Shown: positions 36,876 to 45,072 of the stretch, one piece after another
How positions within the stretch are numbered: the stretch's first letter is position 1
Layout: the number at the start of each line of letters is the position of its first letter
From: Hymenobacter profundi
GTDB lineage: Bacteria; Bacteroidota; Bacteroidia; Cytophagales; Hymenobacteraceae
DNA: 64,000 bases
Assembly (NCBI RefSeq): GCF_019334315.1
Contig: NZ_JAHWGL010000009.1
Coordinates: 1-64,000 of the forward strand
Direction: 5' to 3'
Program-made: the position numbers and the translations under genes
The notes under the pieces: generated by a model
The model's database searches: none
What the model saw: only the letters and a program-made list of their open reading frames with translations
Told to the model about the DNA's origin: nothing

Positions 36876-37382
36876 CTAGTGAGCACGCCGGGCCTCAGCG
36901 GCGGTGTGCAACGCGGCACCTAGCAGCTCCAAGTCTTTGAGGATAAAGCCACCCGCCCCACCCGGTACCCATAAGCCATCGACCACGGCAAACGCGTTAG
37001 GCGTCGTGAACAGGAATGACAGCGTAACGCCAAACATAAAGACGGCTCCTAGGCTCCCAACATAAGACAGCCGCGGCGCTACTGGTCGCAGGGCAATCAG
37101 CAGGGCAATCAGAATTTCAGCCGTGCCAACAAGGTTGGACAGCATCCGCACGCTGACAATATCGTAGAGCCACGCAAACAGCGGACTATTGACAAATAGC
37201 GGCTGAATACCAGCAGCCTCAGTCGGCGTGAATTTAAACAGGCCAAACCACAGGATGAGGAGCACCAAACCGTAACGCAGGACGAACGTGCCCGCACGGT
37301 CTAGGGGCGTGGACGGAGCAGGCGAGTGGTGGAGCCAAGGAACTGCGGTAGGCGATTGAGAAGCAGGGGAAGTGGGTTGCAT
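36876..37382 (-). CDS. DUF417 / YkgB (RclC)-type membrane protein
   Basis: 168 residues from the ATG at 37382 (MQPTSPAS...); the frame is open 18 residues upstream. It contains four hydrophobic helices, and the typical DUF417 stretch LVLLILWFGLFKFTPTEAAG is followed by PLFVNSPLFAWLYDIVSVRM. In E. coli, the relative RclC belongs to the reactive-chlorine resistance operon rclABC; other members are uncharacterised. Here it is the last gene on the minus strand before a run of redox genes (DUF1223, peroxiredoxin, molybdoenzyme, cytochrome b), which agrees with a stress role by context only. Confidence 0.85.
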   Translation of the reverse strand: MQPTSPASQSPTAVPWLHHSPAPSTPLDRAGTFVLRYGLVLLILWFGLFKFTPTEAAGIQPLFVNSPLFAWLYDIVSVRMLSNLVGTAEILIALLIALRPVAPRLSYVGSLGAVFMFGVTLSFLFTTPNAFAVVDGLWVPGGAGGFILKDLELLGAALHTAAEARRAH

Positions 37383-37538
37383 AAGCGAGAGCCAACGCGT
37401 GGCCGGGTAAGGGGTAGAAGGGGAGGGGTACTGCAACTAGTATATCGCCCGACTCGGTGCTCAGAACGGACCACATCGAGCTCGCGGGCTCAAGCTACGA
37501 ACAGCGTAAAAAGCCGTTTTTTTTGATAACTGCACTAC

Positions 37539-38321
37539 TTACTTAACCGCCGTACTACCATCGCCTAGCGAGAGGCTCCCTACCCCCACTACGTGGTGCG
37601 AGGCGACTTCCTGCACCAGCACCACGGCCCGTAAGGAGTTGGTTTTCCAGTCAGCCTGCAGGTGGAGCAGGGTACTGCCGGTGAAGGTGCCCTCGGCCCC
37701 CACCGTGCCGAGGGTACGCAGGCTGCGCACTACAGCAGCGTGGCGCAATAGGCGGCCCGTGTTTTCGCCCCGGCCTATGTGCGAAGACAAACCCGTTTCG
37801 GTGAGGGCTAACTCGACACTAGCGGCCTTAATGCCGGCGGGCAAGTGACTAACCTGCACGACGATAGCACCAGTGGCGGCGCGAGTTAGCGTCACGGTAG
37901 CGCGGGGCGTGTGTGCAGCTTTGGCCACGGTGCTACGCTGGCTGCCGACGAACTCGTACCGGCCATTTACGACGGCCTGGGGCGTGTAGTGACCTGCCTT
38001 AAATCCCTGGGCGTATCAGCGCTGGCGGGCCGTGAATTGGGCTGACGAAAACGGGTCTTTCCAGCCCAGCCTGTTCCAATAATCGACGTGCTGGCCCAAG
38101 GCGATAACCTTGACGCCGGGCACCGACTGTACCGTTTCCAGTTCGCGCAGCGCCGCATCGGCGGCGGGGCACAACGAGCACCCTTCCGAGGTGAATAGCT
38201 CCACGACCACCGGCACGGCAGCGGGTACGGGTAGTTTGGTGGCCGGCCCCGAAGACGACGTAAGAGCTACGCTCGCAGCAGCAGCCAGCACGGGTGCCAG
38301 GGCAAATAGGATACGAATCAT
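37539..38321 (-). pseudogene. DUF1223-family protein with one premature TGA
   Basis: The frame runs from the ATG at 38321 to 37539, about 260 codons, with a single TGA at 38016-38018. The first part has a signal-like segment ([19 protein letters not shown]) and the thioredoxin-like DUF1223 core with [21 protein letters not shown], a CSLC motif. After the stop the family sequence continues at once (YAQGFKAGHYTPQAVVNGRYEFVGS). The stop probably replaced an Arg (CGA) or Trp codon. DUF1223 proteins are secreted thioredoxin-fold proteins of unknown function. A sequencing error or a recent mutation cannot be told apart; the flanking genes are intact. Confidence 0.85.
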
Positions 38322-38547
38322 GCTAAGAAGGGGAAAGTTGTCAAGCCCGGAAGCCGGCTTTTGGAATTGCTAGACGCGCCGCTTGCCACTTCCTTGCAGC
38401 GGTAAGCAGAAAAAGAACGTGGGGCCGGCGGCATAGGTACGGGCAGACAGTGGGCGCTGGGGTACCCACTAGCTAGGCAGCAGGACCAGCAGAAACAAAA
38501 CTTCAACTACGCAGTTATCAGCTGCTTACCTGGATTACCTTGGGCCG

Positions 38548-39144
38548 TTATAGTGCTTGCGTTACCTGCTTCACGCTGGCGCGGTGGCGGTAGTCGGGGT
38601 TGAAGTAGGCAAATTTGATTGTGCCGTCGCGGCCGATCACGTAGGTGGCCGGCACGGGCAGCACCGCCACATCGGCTCCATTGGCCCCTTTCAAATCCAC
38701 GCCGAAACCTTGGTATTTCTGCACCGTGGCGTCATCCACGGTGAAGGCGGTTTTGTATGCCTTCATGATGGCAAAATCCTGGTCGTGGACGACGGGAATG
38801 CGGAGCTGGGTTTTCGCTACCGTCTTGTCGATGTTGGTTTGGATTTCGGGTGTTACCACCACTACTTGGGCCCCCTTCGCGGTCAGGGTTTGCAGCGAAT
38901 CCTGTAATTGGCTGAGCTGCTTGTTGCAATACGGGCACCACTGTCCGCGGTAGAAATAGAGTACCACGGGGCCTTTTTTCAGGAGTTGAGCCAGTTCGAC
39001 GGGCCGCCCAGCCGTATCCTGGCTTTTGAAAGCGGGCGCGGTCTGCCCCACCGTCAGGGCGGAGGCCGTAAGGGGGGGCGTGGTTTGGGCCAGAACGGGC
39101 GTGGCGAGCAGCAGACTGCCCGCGAGATAAAGGAACTTGGTCAT
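38548..39144 (-). CDS. Periplasmic peroxiredoxin (AhpC/TSA-like)
   Basis: 198 residues from an ATG at 39144 with a signal peptide (FLYLAGSLLLATPVLAQ). The thioredoxin-like fold is clear: VGQTAPAFKSQDTAGRPVEL, then VVLYFYRGQWCPYCNKQLSQL with Cys70 and Cys73, then QVVVVTPEIQ and PATYVIGRDGTIKFAYFNPDY. The WCPYC motif is that of the peroxiredoxin-like group that reduces peroxides or disulfides. Signal peptide and neighbours suggest an extracytoplasmic stress role. An inverted repeat at 39211-39248 separates it from the molybdoenzyme gene, so it likely has its own promoter. Confidence 0.88.
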   Translation of the reverse strand: MTKFLYLAGSLLLATPVLAQTTPPLTASALTVGQTAPAFKSQDTAGRPVELAQLLKKGPVVLYFYRGQWCPYCNKQLSQLQDSLQTLTAKGAQVVVVTPEIQTNIDKTVAKTQLRIPVVHDQDFAIMKAYKTAFTVDDATVQKYQGFGVDLKGANGADVAVLPVPATYVIGRDGTIKFAYFNPDYRHRASVKQVTQAL

Positions 39145-39210
39145 CGTGAAAAAGGAGGGAAAAGTGCACTTCTTACCTGCTAGACGCCCTACCAGCCCTT
39201 ACCTTACACC

Positions 39211-39248
39211 CTACGCTAAGATTTTTTGTATAAAAATTCTTAGCGTAG
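39211..39248 (-). terminator. Hairpin between molybdoenzyme and peroxiredoxin genes
   Basis: The arms CTACGCTAAGA and TCTTAGCGTAG (39211-39221 and 39238-39248) are perfectly paired, and the inner part is AT-rich with T- and A-runs on either strand. It lies 80 bases after the molybdoenzyme stop in its direction of transcription and could also end transcripts on the other strand. Confidence 0.65.
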
Positions 39249-39328
39249 AGTATGCAGTTAGCTGGCAAGAGGCAGGAAAATTGTATGAATTTCCTTACGT
39301 ACTTATTCAAGTGAACTACTTTGCCCGC

Positions 39329-40180
39329 TCAGTGCCCAGCGTACCAATCGTAGCCCCGCTCGGCCCAGTAGTCGGCGGGGCGGGTATCGGTGAAGGCGAT
39401 GGTACCGATGCGCTTGAGGTGCTTGATGCCGTACTTGAGGGGCGTGACCAGGCGCAGCGGGGCGCCGTGTTCCAGCGGTAGCGGCTGGCCGTTCAACTCG
39501 TAACAAAGTAGGGTTTGAGGATGCAGTACCGTTTCCTGCTCCAGGCCCACGTAGTACGCCTCGTCGGGCGTCACGAAGCTAGCGTAGCGGGCCACATCGG
39601 CTGGGGGCGCCGCGGGGTTTAGGATGGGCTGACCCGAGGCCGTGGCCAGGGGGTAGCGGGCCAGAAAATCGGTAAGCCGTACCCCGGCCCAGGTCACCAC
39701 GACGCTCCAGCCCTCGATGCACTTAAACTCGGTGGTCATCTCGGTGCGCGGCAGGGCTTTTACGTCGGCTAGGGTGACGTGCTGGGTGCGGGCCGGCGCG
39801 CCGGGGGCAGCGTAGCCTTGCACGGTAAGCTGCCAGGTAGCCGGGTCGAACTCGTTACCTAGGCCCACGTCGCCGTTAGCACGCAAGCGGCGGGCGTGGC
39901 CTTTGGTAAACTCGGGGGCTAGGCGCGTATGTTTAGAGTAGGCCTGCGTGAGCTGCGCGTTGAAATCCAGTACATTGCGCAAGCCCACCGGAAGGCCGTC
40001 GGCCTCAGGGGTATGCAGTAGGTAGCGCCAGCCGGCCAGCCCCGCTAGGCCGGCTAGGCCCAGCCCGATAAAAGAGCGTCTCGAGCGCTTCGTAGCTGCT
40101 TGTAGGGCCGCCGCTTCGGAAGCAGGAGCTGGCACGGCGACGTTAACGGCTGGCGGCGCGGGGGGCGTTTCGTTGGTCAT
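39329..40180 (-). CDS. Molybdopterin-dependent oxidoreductase, sulfite-oxidase fold
   Basis: 283 residues from the ATG at 40180. Residues 31-50 are a Tat-type signal (KRSRRSFIGLGLAGLAGLAG with the twin Arg). The molybdenum-ligand Cys lies in TTEFKCIEGWSVVVTWAGV (C154), and the family motif PLRLVTPLKYGIKHLKRIG comes near the end, with TRPADYWAERGYDW closing. It belongs to the group of MsrP/YedY-like and sulfite-oxidase-like periplasmic enzymes. The adjacent cytochrome b gene 60 bp upstream in the same direction encodes a likely electron-donating or -accepting partner. The substrate may be sulfite or oxidised methionine; the sequence does not decide. Confidence 0.88.
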   Translation of the reverse strand: MTNETPPAPPAVNVAVPAPASEAAALQAATKRSRRSFIGLGLAGLAGLAGWRYLLHTPEADGLPVGLRNVLDFNAQLTQAYSKHTRLAPEFTKGHARRLRANGDVGLGNEFDPATWQLTVQGYAAPGAPARTQHVTLADVKALPRTEMTTEFKCIEGWSVVVTWAGVRLTDFLARYPLATASGQPILNPAAPPADVARYASFVTPDEAYYVGLEQETVLHPQTLLCYELNGQPLPLEHGAPLRLVTPLKYGIKHLKRIGTIAFTDTRPADYWAERGYDWYAGH

Positions 40181-40240
40181 AGCAAAAGCCAGCAGCCTGC
40201 TGGTAGTTAGTAGTTAATAGAAAAGAAAAGCGGATGCTTG

Positions 40241-40966
40241 CTACTGCTGTTTGCTCGGGGTATCGCCGGCGGGCAGGGCTGTCGGGCCAGCTAGTACGTT
40301 GCGAGTAGCGGGGTCGACGTCTTTCAGCTCGAAGCCGGCTACCATTGCTCGGAAATTGTTCCAGCCCGCCCGCACTACCTGCGCGATGTGCACGATAAAA
40401 AAGAGCACGTATCCCACCGTAAGCGCGAAGTGCAGCAAGCGCGCCGTTTCGTAGCCGCCCAGCAGCTGCGTAAGCCAGCCCAGCTGCACGGGTTGATACA
40501 TAGCCAGGCCTGTCAGTACCGAGCCCACGCCCATCAGGATGACGGCGGTATAGGCAAGCTGCTGGGCGCCGTTGAACTTGCGGATTGGCGGCCCGTTCTT
40601 CCGCAGGCCCAGGTCGTGGAGCGTCACCTGAACGGCTTCCTGAAACGAGTGCCGGGTAGGCAGCAAGTAGCGCCACTCGCCGGAAATAGCCGTGTAGAGC
40701 ACGTAGAGCAGTCCGTTGAGCAAGAAAGCCCACATCAGCACAAAGTGCCACGCCATGCCCTGGGCTAGCTTGTGGTCGAGGTGAAAGGCTTGGTAGAAGG
40801 AAGTAGGGAAGAACTGAAGCAGCGTCGTGCTGCCCCAGCCGAGGCGATATACGTCGTTGGCCCAATAGATCCAGAGCCCACTCCATAGCATGAGGCTGAG
40901 GATGGGAAAATTGAGCCAGTGAAACCAGCGAATAGCCAGCGGGTGCTTTTCGACAACGACTTTCAT
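40241..40966 (-). CDS. Cytochrome b/b6-type membrane haem protein
   Basis: 241 residues from the ATG encoding MKVVVEKHP (40966); the frame extends upstream over the strong hairpin at 41042 and that start is rejected. It has four hydrophobic helices with His pairs suitable for two b-type haems: HPLAIRWFHWLNFPILSLML, then HLDHKLAQGMAWHFVLMWAF, then LLHFALTVGYVLFFIVHIAQ. Such proteins are electron partners of periplasmic molybdoenzymes, comparable in role to MsrQ/YedZ although of another family. Operon with the molybdoenzyme gene just downstream. Confidence 0.87.
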   Translation of the reverse strand: MKVVVEKHPLAIRWFHWLNFPILSLMLWSGLWIYWANDVYRLGWGSTTLLQFFPTSFYQAFHLDHKLAQGMAWHFVLMWAFLLNGLLYVLYTAISGEWRYLLPTRHSFQEAVQVTLHDLGLRKNGPPIRKFNGAQQLAYTAVILMGVGSVLTGLAMYQPVQLGWLTQLLGGYETARLLHFALTVGYVLFFIVHIAQVVRAGWNNFRAMVAGFELKDVDPATRNVLAGPTALPAGDTPSKQQ

Positions 40967-41041
40967 ACGCAACAGGAAACAAGAGGGCACTACCCTCTCA
41001 TGCGAGGGGCAGCTGGTCCGGTAGACGGAGTGTTGGGCCAC

Positions 41042-41089
41042 TCCTTACAGGGCGGGGGCGGTAAAAAAATCACCCCCGCCTTGTAAGGA
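41042..41089. promoter_or_regulatory. Strong GC-rich hairpin between divergent redox and sigma genes
   Basis: Left arm TCCTTACAGGGCGGGGG (41042-41058) pairs with CCCCCGCCTTGTAAGGA (41073-41089) in 16 of 17 positions around a 14-base A-rich loop. It lies 76 bp before the cytochrome b start and 208 bp before the sigma factor start, in the only divergent region of the islet. It could be a leader attenuator for the redox operon or a boundary; no gene ends here, so a plain terminator is unlikely. Confidence 0.6.
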
Positions 41090-41296
41090 TGGAGGCCCGA
41101 AGGCGTCTAGGCTAGGGTAAGCCGACGAGCAGCCGAATCATACCCAATAGAAGTGCCCTGCTGATGCAAGCGAGCCACCGGCCTCTTTTACCTCGCCTGT
41201 AAGAGTTGTCCGGTAGGCAGGCCGTCGACTTACATAGGCTACGCTGGCTTTTACTTTATTCGTACTATACTCCTTACTTACTTGACTTTTAGCGCA

Positions 41297-41905
41297 ATGC
41301 GAACGCCGCTCATTGGTTTGGAGCCTCAGCAGTGGCTTGCTCGCTTCGGCGACGAGCTGTACCGCTACGCACTGGGCCGCGTGGCGGAGGCAGGTATGGC
41401 CGAGGAACTGGTGCAAGACACATTCGTCAGCGCCCTAGAAGCCCAGGCGTCTTTTCGCGGGCAGGCCTCGGAGCGCACGTGGTTGTTTGTCATCCTGAAG
41501 CGCAAAATTATTGACCACTACCGGCGGCAGGCCCGCTCGCCCTTCGTCCCGCTCACCCTCACGCCCGAGCAGCTGCCGGAAGCCGAATTTTTTCGGCCGG
41601 CCGACGGGCATTGGCGCGAGGAGGAATACCCGGCCCCCTGGGACGGGGTAGGCGACGAAGGTCGGGGGGATGTGCTGGTAGAACAGGCTGAATTTCAACA
41701 TATCCTAAAAAGCTGCCAGGAGCGGCTTTCGCCGCAGCACCTGGCCGTATTTGTGCTGCGCTTCGTAGAGGAACTGCCGGCCGAGGCTATTTGTCAGGAA
41801 CTCGGCCTCTCGCCGTCAAACTACTGGGTCATCGTGCACCGGGCCAAGTTGCAGCTGCGCCGCTGCCTCGAAAAGAACTGGTTTCAGTCCCCCCCCGCAT
41901 CATGA
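41297..41905 (+). CDS. ECF-type RNA polymerase sigma factor
   Basis: 202 residues from the ATG at 41297; a TTG five codons earlier is less likely. Region 2 is clear (FGDELYRYALGRVAEAGMAEELVQDTFVSALEA, then FRGQASERTWLFVILKRKIIDHYRR). Region 4 follows (LSPQHLAVFVLRFVEELPAEAICQELGLSPSNYWVIVHRAKLQLR). There is an acidic linker of about 50 residues between the two. The anti-sigma gene overlaps its end by 4 bases (ATGA), so the pair is coupled. It is divergent from the molybdoenzyme-cytochrome operon and probably controls it. Confidence 0.92.
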   Translation: MRTPLIGLEPQQWLARFGDELYRYALGRVAEAGMAEELVQDTFVSALEAQASFRGQASERTWLFVILKRKIIDHYRRQARSPFVPLTLTPEQLPEAEFFRPADGHWREEEYPAPWDGVGDEGRGDVLVEQAEFQHILKSCQERLSPQHLAVFVLRFVEELPAEAICQELGLSPSNYWVIVHRAKLQLRRCLEKNWFQSPPAS

Positions 41906-42183
41906 GCATTCCCTCGCCCCTCTTCAACTGCCAGCAAGCCACCCTGCTCCTGGAACGCCGCGCCGACGCACCACTGCCAGCCAAAACCAATGCTCAGCTC
42001 TGGGCGCACCTGCGCCTTTGTCCCTACTGCCGGCGCTATGCGTTTCAAAGCTCCTTCCTGGCTCGTCAGGCCAAAGCGGCAGCCGAGGCCGTTGTGCCAG
42101 CCGACCTGCCATTACCGGTCAGCTTGCGCGCCCGCTTGCAGCAGCTCATCGACACGCACGAGGCGGGGCTCCAGCAGGAATAG
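41902..42183 (+). CDS. Putative zinc-binding anti-sigma factor (soluble)
   Basis: 93 residues from the ATG that overlaps the sigma stop. It carries the zinc-anti-sigma motif H-x3-C-x2-C in AHLRLCPYCRRY (about residues 37-48). No transmembrane helix is visible, so it is a cytoplasmic protein like the thiol-redox switch RsrA rather than a membrane anti-sigma factor. In RsrA-type proteins, oxidation of the zinc cysteines releases the sigma factor. Its place after the ECF gene makes the role likely, and the redox neighbours agree with a disulfide-stress signal. The exact stimulus is inference. Confidence 0.75.
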   Translation: MSIPSPLFNCQQATLLLERRADAPLPAKTNAQLWAHLRLCPYCRRYAFQSSFLARQAKAAAEAVVPADLPLPVSLRARLQQLIDTHEAGLQQE

Positions 42184-42272
42184 AGGTTTTTTAAGTAAGA
42201 TGTAAGTTCCTATTAAGTGGGGCGTCTGTCTGCTGGAAACTACTTTATTGCTCACTTTTTCACCCCTCTCAC

Positions 42273-42446
42273 ATGCGTACGTTCCTCGTTTCCGCTTCTT
42301 CGGTCCTACTCGTCCTCACACTCGTGCTGGCCACACCGCTTGCCCACGCCCAGAATGGCGGTAAAAAGCAAGATGAGAAGATGGCACAAAGCAACATGAG
42401 CCGCGGTAAAAGGGCAAAGGACAAAATTCGTGACAACAAACTGTAA
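42273..42446 (+). CDS. Tiny secreted basic protein
   Basis: 57 residues starting ATG-CGT-ACG at 42273. It has a textbook signal peptide (FLVSASSVLLVLTLVLATPLAHA) and a short charged mature part of about 30 residues (QNGGKKQDEKMAQSNMSRGK, then RAKDKIRDNKL). It lies 90 bp behind the anti-sigma gene on the same strand and likely belongs to the same stress unit. No family is recognised. In another bacterium (Azospira) a chlorine-stress sigma locus encodes a small secreted methionine-rich scavenger; here only two of 32 mature residues are Met, so that function cannot be claimed. Confidence 0.6.
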   Translation: MRTFLVSASSVLLVLTLVLATPLAHAQNGGKKQDEKMAQSNMSRGKRAKDKIRDNKL

Positions 42447-42891
42447 GATCTTATCAACAAGGCTATATAAGGGAGCTATCCTGCATGCAGGATTGAGGTG
42501 GTCCGATTACGCTGGACAGTTTAGGGTGCTAAGTGGAAGCAACTGTTGATGAGTGTGATACGGCGTCTGGTAGCCAATACTGGAGTGCAGGCGCTCGTGA
42601 TTGTAGTAGTCAAAATACTCAGCCACGCTGCGTTGGGCGTCGGCTAGGTCGGCAAAAACGGGCCGCTCGCGGACTTCGAGTACCTCCGTTTTGAGGCGCG
42701 ACCACAGACTTTCAGCTTGGGCGTTATCGTAGCAGTCGCCGCGGCGACTCTGCGAGCGCAGGACGTGATGGTCGTGCAGCAGTTTACGGTAGGCATTGCC
42801 GCAACACTGCCCGCCCCGGTCCGAGTGGACGAGCAAGCCGGGCGTGGGTGGCTGCGCCCAAAAAGCCCGCTGCAAAGCCGTGTTAATCAGT

Positions 42892-44080
42892 TGTACGCTT
42901 CCCCAAACCGAGCGCCAGTTGTGAGTAGAGAAAGATGTAACTTTCCCTACCTGACGACTGAGAAATGAAAAAAGGACGATTCAGCGAGGCCCAGATTGTG
43001 GCCATTCTTCAACAGCAAGCCAGTGGGCAGACGGTGGCCCAGATTGCGCGCGAGCATGGCTTGAGCGAGGCCACGTTTTATGCCTGGAAAAGCAAATACG
43101 CCGGGGCCAGCGTCGCCGAGCTCACCCGGCTCAAGCACCTGGAAGAGGAGAATCGTAAGCTCAAGCAGATGTTCGCCGACCTAAGCCTAGAGAATCAGGC
43201 CATTAAGGAGATCCTGCGAAAAAAGTAAGTAGCCCTGCGGCGCGGCGCCAGGCAGCGCAGGGCTTAGTAAGGAAGGGCTGGAGCCAGCGCCGGGCGTGTG
43301 CCCTGGTGGGGCTGGCGCGCGGCAGCTATCATCCCGTGGCGCAGGGGCGAAACGATGCGCCCGTGCAGCAGGCCCTGCGGGCGTTAAGTGGGCGGCATCC
43401 GGGCTGGGGGGTCTGGAAACTGCACCACCGCTTGCGCAAAAATGGACTGCTAATCAACCATAAACGCACGTTACGCATCTATCGGGCCCTGGCCCTTAAC
43501 CTGCCTCGGCGCCTGAAAAAGCGTGTGCCCGCCCGCATCAAGCAGCCCCTAGTGGTGCCCGAGGCCGCCAACGAGTGCTGGTCACTCGACTTTACGAGCG
43601 ACGTGTTGACCGACGGCCGCCGGTTCCGCACGCTCAACGTGCTCGACGACTACAACCGCGAACTGCTGGGCGTGGAAATCGACTTCTCTTTGCCTGCTAG
43701 TCGCGTCGTGCAGGTACTCACGCGCTTAGTCGAGTGCTATGGTCGCCCCCTGCAGCTGCGCACCGACAACGGCCCTGAATTTATCAGCGCCAAGCTGAGT
43801 GAGTGGTGTGAGCAGCAGGGCATTTCCCTGCACTGGATTCAGCCCGGTAAGCCGACGCAGAATGCCTACATCGAACGCTTCAACGGCTCGTTCCGCCGCG
43901 AACTGCTCGACGCCCACCTGTTCCGCTCGCTGGCCCACGTGCGCCAGCTGGTGGACGAGTGGCGGCACGACTATAACACCCAACGGCCCCACCAGGCCTT
44001 GAATTTTATGACCCCACTCGAATTTAAACAAGCCGCTTAACCTCTGCCTACCACTGGCTTATCGAAGAGGGAAGCGTACA
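42892..44080 (+). mobile_element. Intact IS3-family element, IS407 group
   Basis: 1189 bp with short terminal repeats TGTACGCTTCCC (42892-42903 and complement at 44069-44080). It is flanked by the 4-bp duplication CAGT (42888-42891 and 44081-44084), as expected for this group. It splits the transposase of the older element between codons for EEL and INTAL; joining the flanks restores that frame. It is the youngest insertion in the window. Confidence 0.92.
42965..44040 (+). CDS. IS407-group OrfAB transposase with -1 frameshift
   Basis: OrfA (42965-43228, 87 residues) is an IS3-type helix-turn-helix and leucine-zipper protein (FSEAQIVAILQQQASGQTVA, then LEEENRKLKQMFADL) ending CGA-AAA-AAG-TAA. 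The slippery A AAA AAG at 43219-43225 lets ribosomes move one base back. They then read on as VSSPAARRQAAQGLVRKGW into OrfB, which is open to 44040. OrfB has the DDE core: WSLDFTSDVLTDG, LRTDNGPEFIS and NAYIERFNGSFRREL, plus HQALNFMTPLEF at the end. Every frame is intact, so the element can probably move. Confidence 0.9.
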
Positions 44081-45072
44081 CAGTTCCTCGGGCATCGTGG
44101 CCATCACGTGCCAGCCCAGCACCTGCTTGCTGGCCATGTCCTGAAAGGCGCACCGGTAGGCCCAGTCGCCATTGGCCAGCGGCAAATACGTGATGTCACT
44201 GACCCAGACCCGGTTGGCTTGCGTCGGCTTGGGCTGATCGAGCAGTCGGTTGGGCGCGCAGCGCAGCCCGTGGGTTGAATCGGTGGTGCGCTGCGTAAAG
44301 GCTTTCGGCTGGAGCGCGTGCAGGCCCCGGCGGCCCATAGGTGCTGACGCCCCACCCGGTGTCCCTTGTTGCGCAGCGCTACCTGCAGGCGGCGCGTGCT
44401 ATAACAGCGCTTATGCACCCCAAACGACTTCACCAGCGCCGTTTTTCACGCCGGTTCCGGCTTGGTTGCTGCCTGCTGCCACGCGTAGTAGCCACTGGCC
44501 GGCACCTGCACCAGCTGGCAGAGCCGCCGCACGGCGTACTGTTCTCGTTGCGCCTCAATGAAACGATAGCGGCTCGTTGTTCCGGTGTCTGTGAGAGCCT
44601 GCGCTCATAACAAGCAACTGGCAATGGCTTTTTTTAAAATGTCCAGCTCCTGCACCTGCCGCCGAGCCAAGACCCGCAGCTGACGCAATTCAGCTGCCGT
44701 GTCCAGATTTAACTCCGCTCCGCGGGCTGCTGCGACTGGCGTGAGCGCCTCTTTTTGCCACTTGTAGAGCAACTTGGGGCTCATGTTGAGCGCACGGGGG
44801 CCGCCTGGGTCGAGCGGCTTTCGCTGGCTAGGCGCAACGCTTCGGCGCGGAAGGCGACGTCATAGCGCCGACACTTGGCGGGTGGGGGGCTGACTTTCAT
44901 GGCGTTCGAAAGAGTAAAACCTATTCTGTCCAGATTTACTCGACCACCTCATCTTGGCTATCCATGTTTGGAGGCAGTGCGTGCTCAATAAAGCTACTTC
45001 CTTCCCGTTCCTCTTTCTGGACGTATGTATGAGCTTGTCGTTTACAGCTAAGCCCTTTTGACAAGCTCTACT

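What the first reader, a model, noticed from the sequence alone, without database searches (positions are those of the whole stretch)
39211..42446. Redox-stress islet under a possible thiol-switched ECF sigma factor
A molybdoenzyme of sulfite-oxidase fold with cytochrome b, a secreted peroxiredoxin, DUF1223 and DUF417/YkgB genes stand back to back with an ECF sigma factor, a soluble H-x3-C-x2-C anti-sigma protein and a tiny secreted protein. The logic resembles known chlorine- or disulfide-stress units (RclC; MsrP/Q with sigma/anti-sigma control in Azospira; RsrA-type switches), but the combination of parts is different. It may be an undescribed Bacteroidota system against reactive chlorine or sulfur species.
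Basis: partly seen in the sequence, partly recalled or inferred. Interest (0 to 1): 0.6.

Follow-up and report, generated by a model that had tools for sequence, protein, structure and literature searches.

The report
Sigma-controlled methionine-repair islet in Bacteroidota
A small gene islet in a Hymenobacter-like bacterium looks like one switchable unit, in which a sigma factor held by a zinc-and-thiol protein would turn on envelope repair enzymes through one shared promoter motif, and related bacteria seem to use the same switch for methionine-repair or sulfur-peptide genes.

Summary
The ECF sigma gene (41297-41905) overlaps a gene for a zinc-type anti-sigma protein (C-x25-H-x3-C-x2-C), followed by a small secreted protein. 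Divergent are a b561-type cytochrome and a YedY/MsrP-like molybdoenzyme, then a redoxin, DUF1223 (in-frame stop) and DUF417. New here: TGTAAGG-N15-CGTC lies before the sigma, cytochrome and redoxin genes and, with one mismatch, before the small gene and DUF1223. In 76 related loci the motif before cytochrome b tracks the sigma gene (39 of 46 with, 1 of 30 without). In five site-rich genomes 32 of 37 sites precede recurrent targets, 18 of them MsrA/MsrB. The set recurs, without DUF417, in two Mucilaginibacter species. Promoter and anti-sigma match published Neisseria sigmaE and Haemophilus RpoE2, which control MsrAB. So this is probably a Bacteroidota variant of a known methionine-repair regulon, with an MsrP-like enzyme, a b561-type partner and, in relatives, a methionine-rich peptide where Chitinophaga has a cysteine-rich one. 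Against: in the window's genome the peptide is methionine-poor and three Msr genes checked lack the motif. Inducer, thiol switch and substrate are inferred.

The parts
41297..41905 (+). ECF sigma factor (202 aa)
   Evidence: Sigma70_r2 and r4_2; TIGR02943 147.6 bits, below cut-off 162.2; next best TIGR02943 match in its genome 67 bits
41902..42183 (+). soluble zinc-type (ZAS) anti-sigma factor, 93 aa, C10-H36-C40-C43; start overlaps the sigma stop by 4 bp
   Evidence: NCBIfam antisigmaE 49.5 bits against cut-off 50, a relative 52.4; four ligand residues invariant; the model's three best PDB matches are anti-sigma factors, but E 0.34 or worse
42273..42446 (+). 57-aa secreted protein (signal seen by eye), methionine-poor homologue of MXKDX/MrpX-like peptides
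   Evidence: 63% to the L039 peptide over 49 aa, 46% to L038, 50% to L141; only hit of the L141 peptide in its genome, E 7.9e-10
40241..40966 (-). cytochrome b561-type membrane protein
   Evidence: PF01292 64 bits; beside the molybdoenzyme in 74 of 75 gene-called loci
39329..40180 (-). YedY/MsrP-like molybdoenzyme, twin-arginine signal by eye (RRSFIG), C154-I-E-G-W-S
   Evidence: PF00174; MsrP model 92.4 bits (cut-off 207); E. coli YedY is best PDB match by sequence and by Foldseek
38548..39144 (-). secreted AhpC/TSA-type redoxin with WCPYC
   Evidence: PF00578 101 bits; directly upstream of the sigma gene in L152 and L155
37539..38321 (-). secreted DUF1223 protein, interrupted by one in-frame stop
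   Evidence: PF06764 on both halves; in-frame stop
36876..37436 (-). DUF417 membrane protein (start uncertain)
   Evidence: PF04224 106 bits; own motif 37 bp upstream of the relative in L037
41082..41107 (+). predicted sigma-dependent promoter of the sigma/anti-sigma operon, 189 bp upstream
   Evidence: TGTAAGG-N15-CGTC
41024..41049 (-). predicted sigma-dependent promoter of cytochrome b/molybdoenzyme, 57 bp upstream
   Evidence: relatives
39183..39208 (-). predicted sigma-dependent promoter of the redoxin gene, 38 bp upstream
42201..42226 (+). predicted sigma-dependent promoter of the small secreted protein, 46 bp upstream (TGTAAGT, one mismatch to the 7-base -35)
38372..38398 (-). candidate promoter of DUF1223 (one mismatch), 50 bp upstream

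Best explanation
The islet is the core of an ECF-sigma regulon for repair of oxidised (methionine) sulfur in the envelope. At rest a soluble zinc-binding anti-sigma protein holds the sigma factor (inferred from family and residues). Oxidation of its thiols, most likely by hypochlorous acid or a similar strong oxidant, releases sigma (inferred). Sigma then transcribes promoters TGTAAGG-N15-CGTC(T) in front of its own operon, cytochrome b/molybdoenzyme, redoxin, DUF1223 and the small secreted protein (motif shown, transcription inferred). The Tat-exported MsrP-like enzyme, fed with electrons by the b561-type cytochrome, reduces methionine sulfoxide in the envelope; redoxin, DUF1223 and DUF417 keep exported thiols reduced; in relatives MsrA/MsrB and a methionine-rich sacrificial peptide join the regulon (functions inferred from families). 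It is a Bacteroidota variant of the sigmaE/NMB2145 (Neisseria) and RpoE2/HrsE (Haemophilus) systems.
For: Motif: 4 of the genome's 9 TGTAAG-N16-CGTC sites lie in the 3-kb islet; the reversed control pattern gives 20 in the genome. The motif was defined on the window and then tested elsewhere: 74 hits at N16 against 0, 0, 1 and 0 at N14, N15, N17 and N18, and 5 for the reversed pattern, in 76 loci (75 from other genomes, one the paralogue locus L088); one of the 74 lies inside the L037 sigma gene. Motif upstream of cytochrome b in 39 of 46 loci from sigma-positive genomes against 1 of 30 from sigma-negative, Fisher p 2.6e-13. Sites per genome: in the genus 4.62 (47 sigma-positive) against 0.79 (73 sigma-negative), reversed control 4.34 against 4.04, p 5e-17; in the whole family 4.60 (50) against 1.03 (154). 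In five genomes chosen for many sites, 32 of 37 strict sites precede recurrent target genes (27 of 32 fetched plus 5 cytochrome b); over all 39 fetched sites 20 precede MsrA or MsrB. Gene set without DUF417, with three motif-like promoters each, in Mucilaginibacter L255 and L258. The published Neisseria promoter GTMAGBWTT / CGTCTAAH with 12-13 nt spacer has the same geometry; RpoE2 is tied to HOCl and controls MsrAB and the molybdenum MetSO reductase MtsZ.
Against: No expression or biochemistry. In the window's genome the motif, at up to one mismatch, has 13 sites (reversed control 31), 5 in the islet; three Msr genes whose starts I could place (of seven Msr-like loci fetched) have at best 4 mismatches, the background mode. 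Raw site counts in sigma-positive genomes do not exceed the reversed control by much (4.62 against 4.34 in the genus); the contrast is between genomes. The window peptide has only two methionines after its signal. DUF1223 is interrupted. The molybdoenzyme is below the MsrP cut-off and its partner is not MsrQ. In meningococcus oxidants did not alter sigmaE expression (abstract), and a Haemophilus rpoE2 deletion resisted oxidants like wild type in vitro (abstract). Two genomes without a detected sigma gene have a motif site before cytochrome b (G129) or MsrA (G042). Fisher and Mann-Whitney tests treat related genomes as independent, and the sigma search scored at most 15 candidates per genome.
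Confidence: 0.72

Rival explanations
1. The same sigma regulon answers copper or another thiophilic metal: metal displaces zinc from the anti-sigma thiols, and the secreted peptides (cysteine-rich in Chitinophaga, methionine-rich in Hymenobacter) bind the metal.
For: Near the same sigma gene, 9 of 44 non-Hymenobacter loci hold an HvfA-like cysteine-rich peptide and 8 a DUF692 enzyme; bufferins made by such enzymes help growth under copper stress (start of abstract of PMC12452194). Methionine-rich peptides can bind Cu(I) (recalled).
Against: 20 of 39 fetched motif sites precede MsrA/MsrB; none of the 33 identified targets is a metal exporter, six sites have no recognised target. HOCl and H2O2 raised rpoE2 expression.
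Confidence: 0.15
2. The molybdoenzyme-cytochrome pair is a sulfite dehydrogenase and the islet serves sulfite or sulfur-species stress.
For: Sulfite-oxidase fold; the structure comparison does not separate YedY (Z 16.1) from Starkeya sulfite dehydrogenase (Z 15.4).
Against: Only PF00174 found, no second domain; SorT 42.5 of 570 bits, SorA 41.2 of 600; by sequence E. coli YedY scores 67 bits against 32.4 or less for sulfite oxidases. In relatives the regulon is rich in Msr enzymes.
Confidence: 0.08
3. In the window's own genome the islet is decaying: interrupted DUF1223, a peptide that lost its methionines, transposases alongside.
For: In-frame stop, methionine-poor peptide, transposase genes from 42507 on.
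Against: All five candidate promoters are present, the other reading frames are open, and the anti-sigma zinc residues are kept. The stop could be a sequencing error. This rival concerns this strain only.
Confidence: 0.2

Closest known systems
Neisseria meningitidis sigmaE / NMB2145 (PMC2893595; passages read, abstract in part)
   Same: ECF sigma with downstream ZAS anti-sigma, the same Cys-His-Cys-Cys spacing, the same promoter elements and spacing, methionine sulfoxide reductase in the regulon
   Different: No molybdoenzyme or methionine-rich peptide was seen in the passages read; its regulon carries a DoxX-containing cluster, which the window lacks
Haemophilus influenzae RpoE2 / HrsE (PMC7907618; passages read, abstract in part)
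   Same: Small cytoplasmic ZAS anti-sigma, MsrAB plus a molybdenum MetSO reductase (MtsZ) in the regulon, linked to HOCl
   Different: MsrP-like enzyme with a b561 partner instead of MtsZ; Met-type peptide instead of the DoxX cluster with a periplasmic protein, UPF0276 (DUF692, recalled) and DUF2063
Brucella BcrS/AbcS-BcrXQP (PMC8315932, passages read) and Azospira SigF/NrsF-YedYZ-MrpX (paper PMC4436054 not held; known from citing passages and recall)
   Same: Sigma/anti-sigma next to an MsrP-type enzyme and a methionine-rich MXKDX peptide
   Different: In Brucella the anti-sigma is a six-helix membrane protein (NrsF family) with two conserved cysteines, recognition sequences read TGTAACC...CGAA, and the cytochrome partner is an MsrQ homologue
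HvfABCD / bufferin clusters (PMC12452194, PMC12668002; passages read)
   Same: Cysteine-type counterpart found downstream of the same kind of sigma/anti-sigma pair and promoter motif, e.g. in Chitinophaga
   Different: No DUF692 enzyme seen near the window's sigma; no cysteine in the mature window peptide

Membership tests
Neisseria sigmaE / Haemophilus RpoE2 type sigma-ZAS regulon | ECF sigma followed by a soluble anti-sigma with C-x25-H-x3-C-x2-C | tested here: met
   Window and 18 of 18 aligned. A reading frame found by this motif follows sigma in 80 of 80 loci, Cys-His distance 26 in 74 of 80
Neisseria sigmaE / Haemophilus RpoE2 type sigma-ZAS regulon | promoter GTAAG(G)..CGTCTA with matching spacing | tested here: met
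   against the published consensus
Neisseria sigmaE / Haemophilus RpoE2 type sigma-ZAS regulon | MsrA/MsrB in the regulon | tested here: inconclusive
   Yes in other Hymenobacter genomes (20 of 39 fetched sites); no near-motif at three Msr genes placed in the window's genome
Neisseria sigmaE / Haemophilus RpoE2 type sigma-ZAS regulon | release of sigma on oxidation | not testable with these tools
   needs biochemistry
ECF16 SigF/NrsF with MrpX-MsrPQ | six-transmembrane NrsF anti-sigma | tested here: not met
   93-aa protein, four-helix model, no NrsF match in Pfam or NCBIfam
ECF16 SigF/NrsF with MrpX-MsrPQ | methionine-rich MXKDX peptide | tested here: inconclusive
   Window peptide homologous but methionine-poor, TIGR02953 17 of 41 bits; relative L141 30.9 of 41
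MsrP (YedY) | curated MsrP score | tested here: not met
   92.4 bits, cut-off 207
MsrP (YedY) | Tat signal and C-x-E-x-W-S at the molybdenum cysteine, no second domain (features recalled) | tested here: met
   window sequence, alignment to 1xdq, Pfam. C154, E156, W158 in 12 of 12; in the two Mucilaginibacter copies Asp stands in place of the Ser
MsrQ | ferric-reductase-type cytochrome (PF01794, recalled) | tested here: not met
   cytochrome matches PF01292, b561 type; no PF01794 match
Sulfite dehydrogenase SorT/SorA | curated score and dimerisation domain | tested here: not met
   42.5 of 570 and 41.2 of 600 bits; only PF00174
RclC | curated RclC score | tested here: not met
   73 of 275 bits; DUF417 membership itself met
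RsrA | curated RsrA score | tested here: not met
   13.9 of 62.5 bits

The most novel reading that the evidence does not exclude
One sigma/ZAS switch with one promoter code runs a sulfur-peptide regulon across Bacteroidota in two interchangeable chemistries: a cysteine-rich HvfA-like RiPP with DUF692/DUF2063/DoxX (Chitinophaga), or a methionine-rich repeat peptide with an MsrP-like/cytochrome b561 recycling pair (Hymenobacter, Mucilaginibacter). The b561-type cytochrome and the molybdoenzyme form a second kind of quinol-driven methionine sulfoxide reductase besides MsrPQ.
Probability: 0.35. Interest if true: 0.75.

Novelty: new variant of a known kind. Interest (0 to 1): 0.6.

Why it matters
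It gives Bacteroidota a defined, testable candidate oxidant regulon with an exact promoter. It links this phylum to a regulon known experimentally in Neisseria and Haemophilus, and it puts uncharacterised proteins (DUF1223, DUF417, the WCPYC redoxin, the b561-linked MsrP-like pair) into one proposed pathway. It also shows the same kind of switch beside either a cysteine-rich or a methionine-rich secreted peptide. Among the titles and abstract starts listed by eight searches of the paper library (some searches listed only 15 of 25, 112 and 21 papers) I saw no description of such a regulon in Hymenobacter or other Bacteroidota; most subscription papers are not in that library.

Tried and rejected
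RclC and RsrA as closest models: curated scores far too low. Sulfite dehydrogenase: rejected by sequence scores, not by fold, since the structural Z-scores are nearly tied. The molybdoenzyme model is of moderate quality (mean pLDDT 69.6). The anti-sigma model found no PDB match at E 0.001 or better.

A large motif signal in non-Hymenobacter loci was mostly an artefact: 39 of 50 hits lie inside the sigma gene, where the pattern is encoded by a conserved peptide. Only the 11 hits outside were kept: 7 upstream of HvfA-like genes (in L215 inside an over-long reading frame), 2 of a fused MsrB/MsrA lipoprotein, 2 others. The Mucilaginibacter variant (CGAC or CTAC) was chosen after looking at the sequence. 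A fifth loose window match (41198-41226, 19-base spacer) was dropped because relatives keep 16 bases after TGTAAG.

The methionine-rich peptide search gave 18 of 50 sigma-positive against 9 of 154 sigma-negative genomes, but it misses known cases such as G120 (L090), so it is only indicative. Six of 39 fetched motif sites (L126, L127, L139, L140, L150, L156) precede no recognised regulon gene. The family libraries found no HvfA family in L239; 'HvfA-like' rests on its GKCG repeats and on the neighbouring DUF692/DUF2063/DoxX genes. The regulator's kinship to Neisseria and Haemophilus rests on published descriptions; I had no sequence of theirs to align. Partial molybdoenzyme hits (such as G104 and G118) were not fetched.


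Full report
What is there. On the + strand: ECF sigma (41297-41905), a 93-aa anti-sigma protein whose start overlaps the sigma stop (41902-42183), and a 57-aa secreted protein (42273-42446). Divergently on the - strand: cytochrome b561 (40241-40966), a molybdoenzyme with a Tat-like signal (39329-40180), a secreted redoxin with WCPYC (38548-39144), DUF1223 with one in-frame stop (37539-38321) and DUF417 (36876-37436).

Conservation. The molybdoenzyme search hit 93 of 204 genomes of the family, weak matches included. From it I fetched 76 loci besides the window, among them the paralogue in the window's own genome; partial hits were mostly left out. Of the 75 loci with a called molybdoenzyme gene (window included; L102 and L103 fell out), 74 have the cytochrome beside it and, under strict clustering, 22 DUF1223, 18 the sigma gene, 17 the anti-sigma gene, 7 a secreted MsrA and 6 a methionine-rich peptide. 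The window's own DUF1223 is not among the 22, because it is broken. The sigma gene itself is found in 50 of 204 family genomes. A scan of named genomes gave 332 sigma relatives, of which the best 80 were kept: 36 in Hymenobacter and 44 elsewhere. All 80 have, directly after sigma, a reading frame with the ZAS motif, by which it was sought. In Mucilaginibacter frigoritolerans (L255) and M. pedocola (L258) the locus reads DUF1223-cytochrome b-molybdoenzyme on one strand and sigma-anti-sigma-methionine-rich peptide-redoxin on the other, with genes that look like a molybdate transporter nearby (transporter identified by eye). DUF417 was not found there.

Promoter. By eye I noticed TGTAAGG-N15-CGTC before several islet genes. 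The window holds five TGTAAG-N15to20-CGTC matches, all in the islet, against 0.58 expected. The genome holds nine strict TGTAAG-N16-CGTC sites, four in the islet; the reversed pattern gives 20. Allowing one mismatch in TGTAAGG-N15-CGTCT gives 13 sites (reversed control 31), five in the islet, among them one 50 bp before DUF1223. Because the motif came from the window, the fair test is elsewhere. In 76 other loci there are 74 hits at the exact spacing, 0, 0, 1 and 0 at neighbouring spacings, and 5 for the reversed pattern; one of the 74 lies inside the L037 sigma gene. Cytochrome b carries the motif within 260 bp in 39 of 46 loci from sigma-positive genomes and 1 of 30 from sigma-negative ones; 15- and 17-base spacers and the reversed pattern give none there. 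Of the seven sigma-positive exceptions, L034, L074 and L077 have the motif before a short gene that precedes cytochrome b, L039 has it at about 309 bp, L088 is the paralogue in the window's own genome, and L040 and L080 remain. Genome-wide, sigma-positive genomes of the genus have 4.62 sites and sigma-negative 0.79, with reversed controls of 4.34 and 4.04; over the whole family it is 4.60 in 50 against 1.03 in 154. The raw count in sigma-positive genomes is thus hardly higher than the reversed control; what speaks is the contrast between genomes and where the sites lie. Relatedness of genomes makes these p-values optimistic.

Regulon. In five genomes chosen because they had many listed sites (G030, G053, G055, G056, G066) all 37 strict sites were considered: 5 before cytochrome b and 32 fetched, of which 27 precede recurrent target genes. 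Over all 39 fetched sites, including seven from other genomes taken partly around their sigma genes: cytoplasmic MsrA 5, cytoplasmic MsrB 4, secreted MsrA 6, secreted MsrB 5, thioredoxin-reductase-like flavoprotein 4, DUF1223 6, redoxin 2, methionine-rich peptide 1, none recognised 6 (one example each of the Msr types, flavoprotein, redoxin and peptide checked by family models).

Against the simple story: in the window's genome none of the three Msr genes whose starts I could place has a near-motif, the peptide is a homologue that has lost most methionines, and DUF1223 is interrupted. In this strain the regulon may be limited to the islet or be eroding. Two genomes without a detected sigma gene, G129 and G042, carry motif sites before cytochrome b and MsrA.

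Regulator. The anti-sigma residues C10, H36, C40, C43 are invariant. The passages read for Neisseria NMB2145 and RsrA give the same relative positions (Cys4/His30/Cys34/Cys37 and Cys11/His37/Cys41/Cys44), and the NMB2145 cysteines are important or essential for its activity (PMC2893595). The structure model (mean pLDDT 88.1) has four helices; its three best PDB matches are RsiW, DdvA and MucA, with weak E-values. The published Neisseria sigmaE promoter, GTMAGBWTT and CGTCTAAH with a 12-13 nt spacer, coincides with the motif found here. Haemophilus RpoE2 with its 67-aa ZAS anti-sigma HrsE controls MsrAB, the molybdenum MetSO reductase MtsZ and a DoxX cluster, and HOCl raises rpoE2 expression (PMC7907618). 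Against assuming the inducer: in meningococcus, oxidants did not change sigmaE expression, and the Haemophilus rpoE2 deletion had wild-type resistance in vitro.

Effectors. The molybdoenzyme resembles E. coli YedY/MsrP most (67 bits in PDB, against 32.4 or less for sulfite oxidases) and keeps the Cys-x-Glu-x-Trp motif, but it scores below the MsrP cut-off. Its partner is a b561-type cytochrome, not MsrQ. Among non-Hymenobacter sigma loci, 9 of 44 have an HvfA-like cysteine-rich peptide; DUF692, DUF2063 and DoxX genes occur in 8, 8 and 6 of 44. The two Mucilaginibacter loci have the methionine-rich peptide in the same place, under the same -35 element and spacing with CGAC or CTAC instead of CGTC. 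So the same kind of switch appears with a cysteine-type or a methionine-type secreted peptide. Whether the peptides are related by descent is not shown.

Conclusion. It is best described as a Bacteroidota variant of the sigma/ZAS regulon that repairs oxidised methionine. Shown: gene content, co-conservation, promoter motif and its association with the sigma gene. Inferred: sigma binding, thiol switching, the inducer, the enzyme substrate.

Noticed in passing
window 42507-44338: Integrase-core transposase genes and fragments (rve, HTH_Tnp_1) stand directly beside the islet.
   Followed up: partly
window 38016-38018: In-frame stop in the DUF1223 gene; the relatives seen read through at this place. 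True mutation or sequencing error unknown.
   Followed up: partly
G000:C18:307-1766 (L088): A second cytochrome b/molybdoenzyme pair in the window's genome (molybdoenzyme 59% identical) without the strict promoter motif.
   Followed up: partly
sigma genes of non-Hymenobacter loci, e.g. L218:7463-7488: The promoter motif with exact spacing occurs inside the sigma coding sequence in 39 hits over 44 loci, just before the anti-sigma gene. Codon constraint explains it most simply; an internal anti-sigma promoter is not excluded.
   Followed up: partly
L034 and L039 (gene divergent from cytochrome b); L074 and L077 (short gene before cytochrome b): Further motif-bearing genes (clusters F38 and F99) of unidentified function.
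   Followed up: no
G000:C110: Motif-like sites and MsrA copies lie mirror-symmetrically about position 95,597 on this contig, which suggests a long inverted repeat or an assembly artefact.
   Followed up: no
L255:11471-13597 and L258:9562-11609: Genes resembling a molybdate ABC transporter (by eye) next to the Mucilaginibacter islet, fitting a molybdoenzyme.
   Followed up: no
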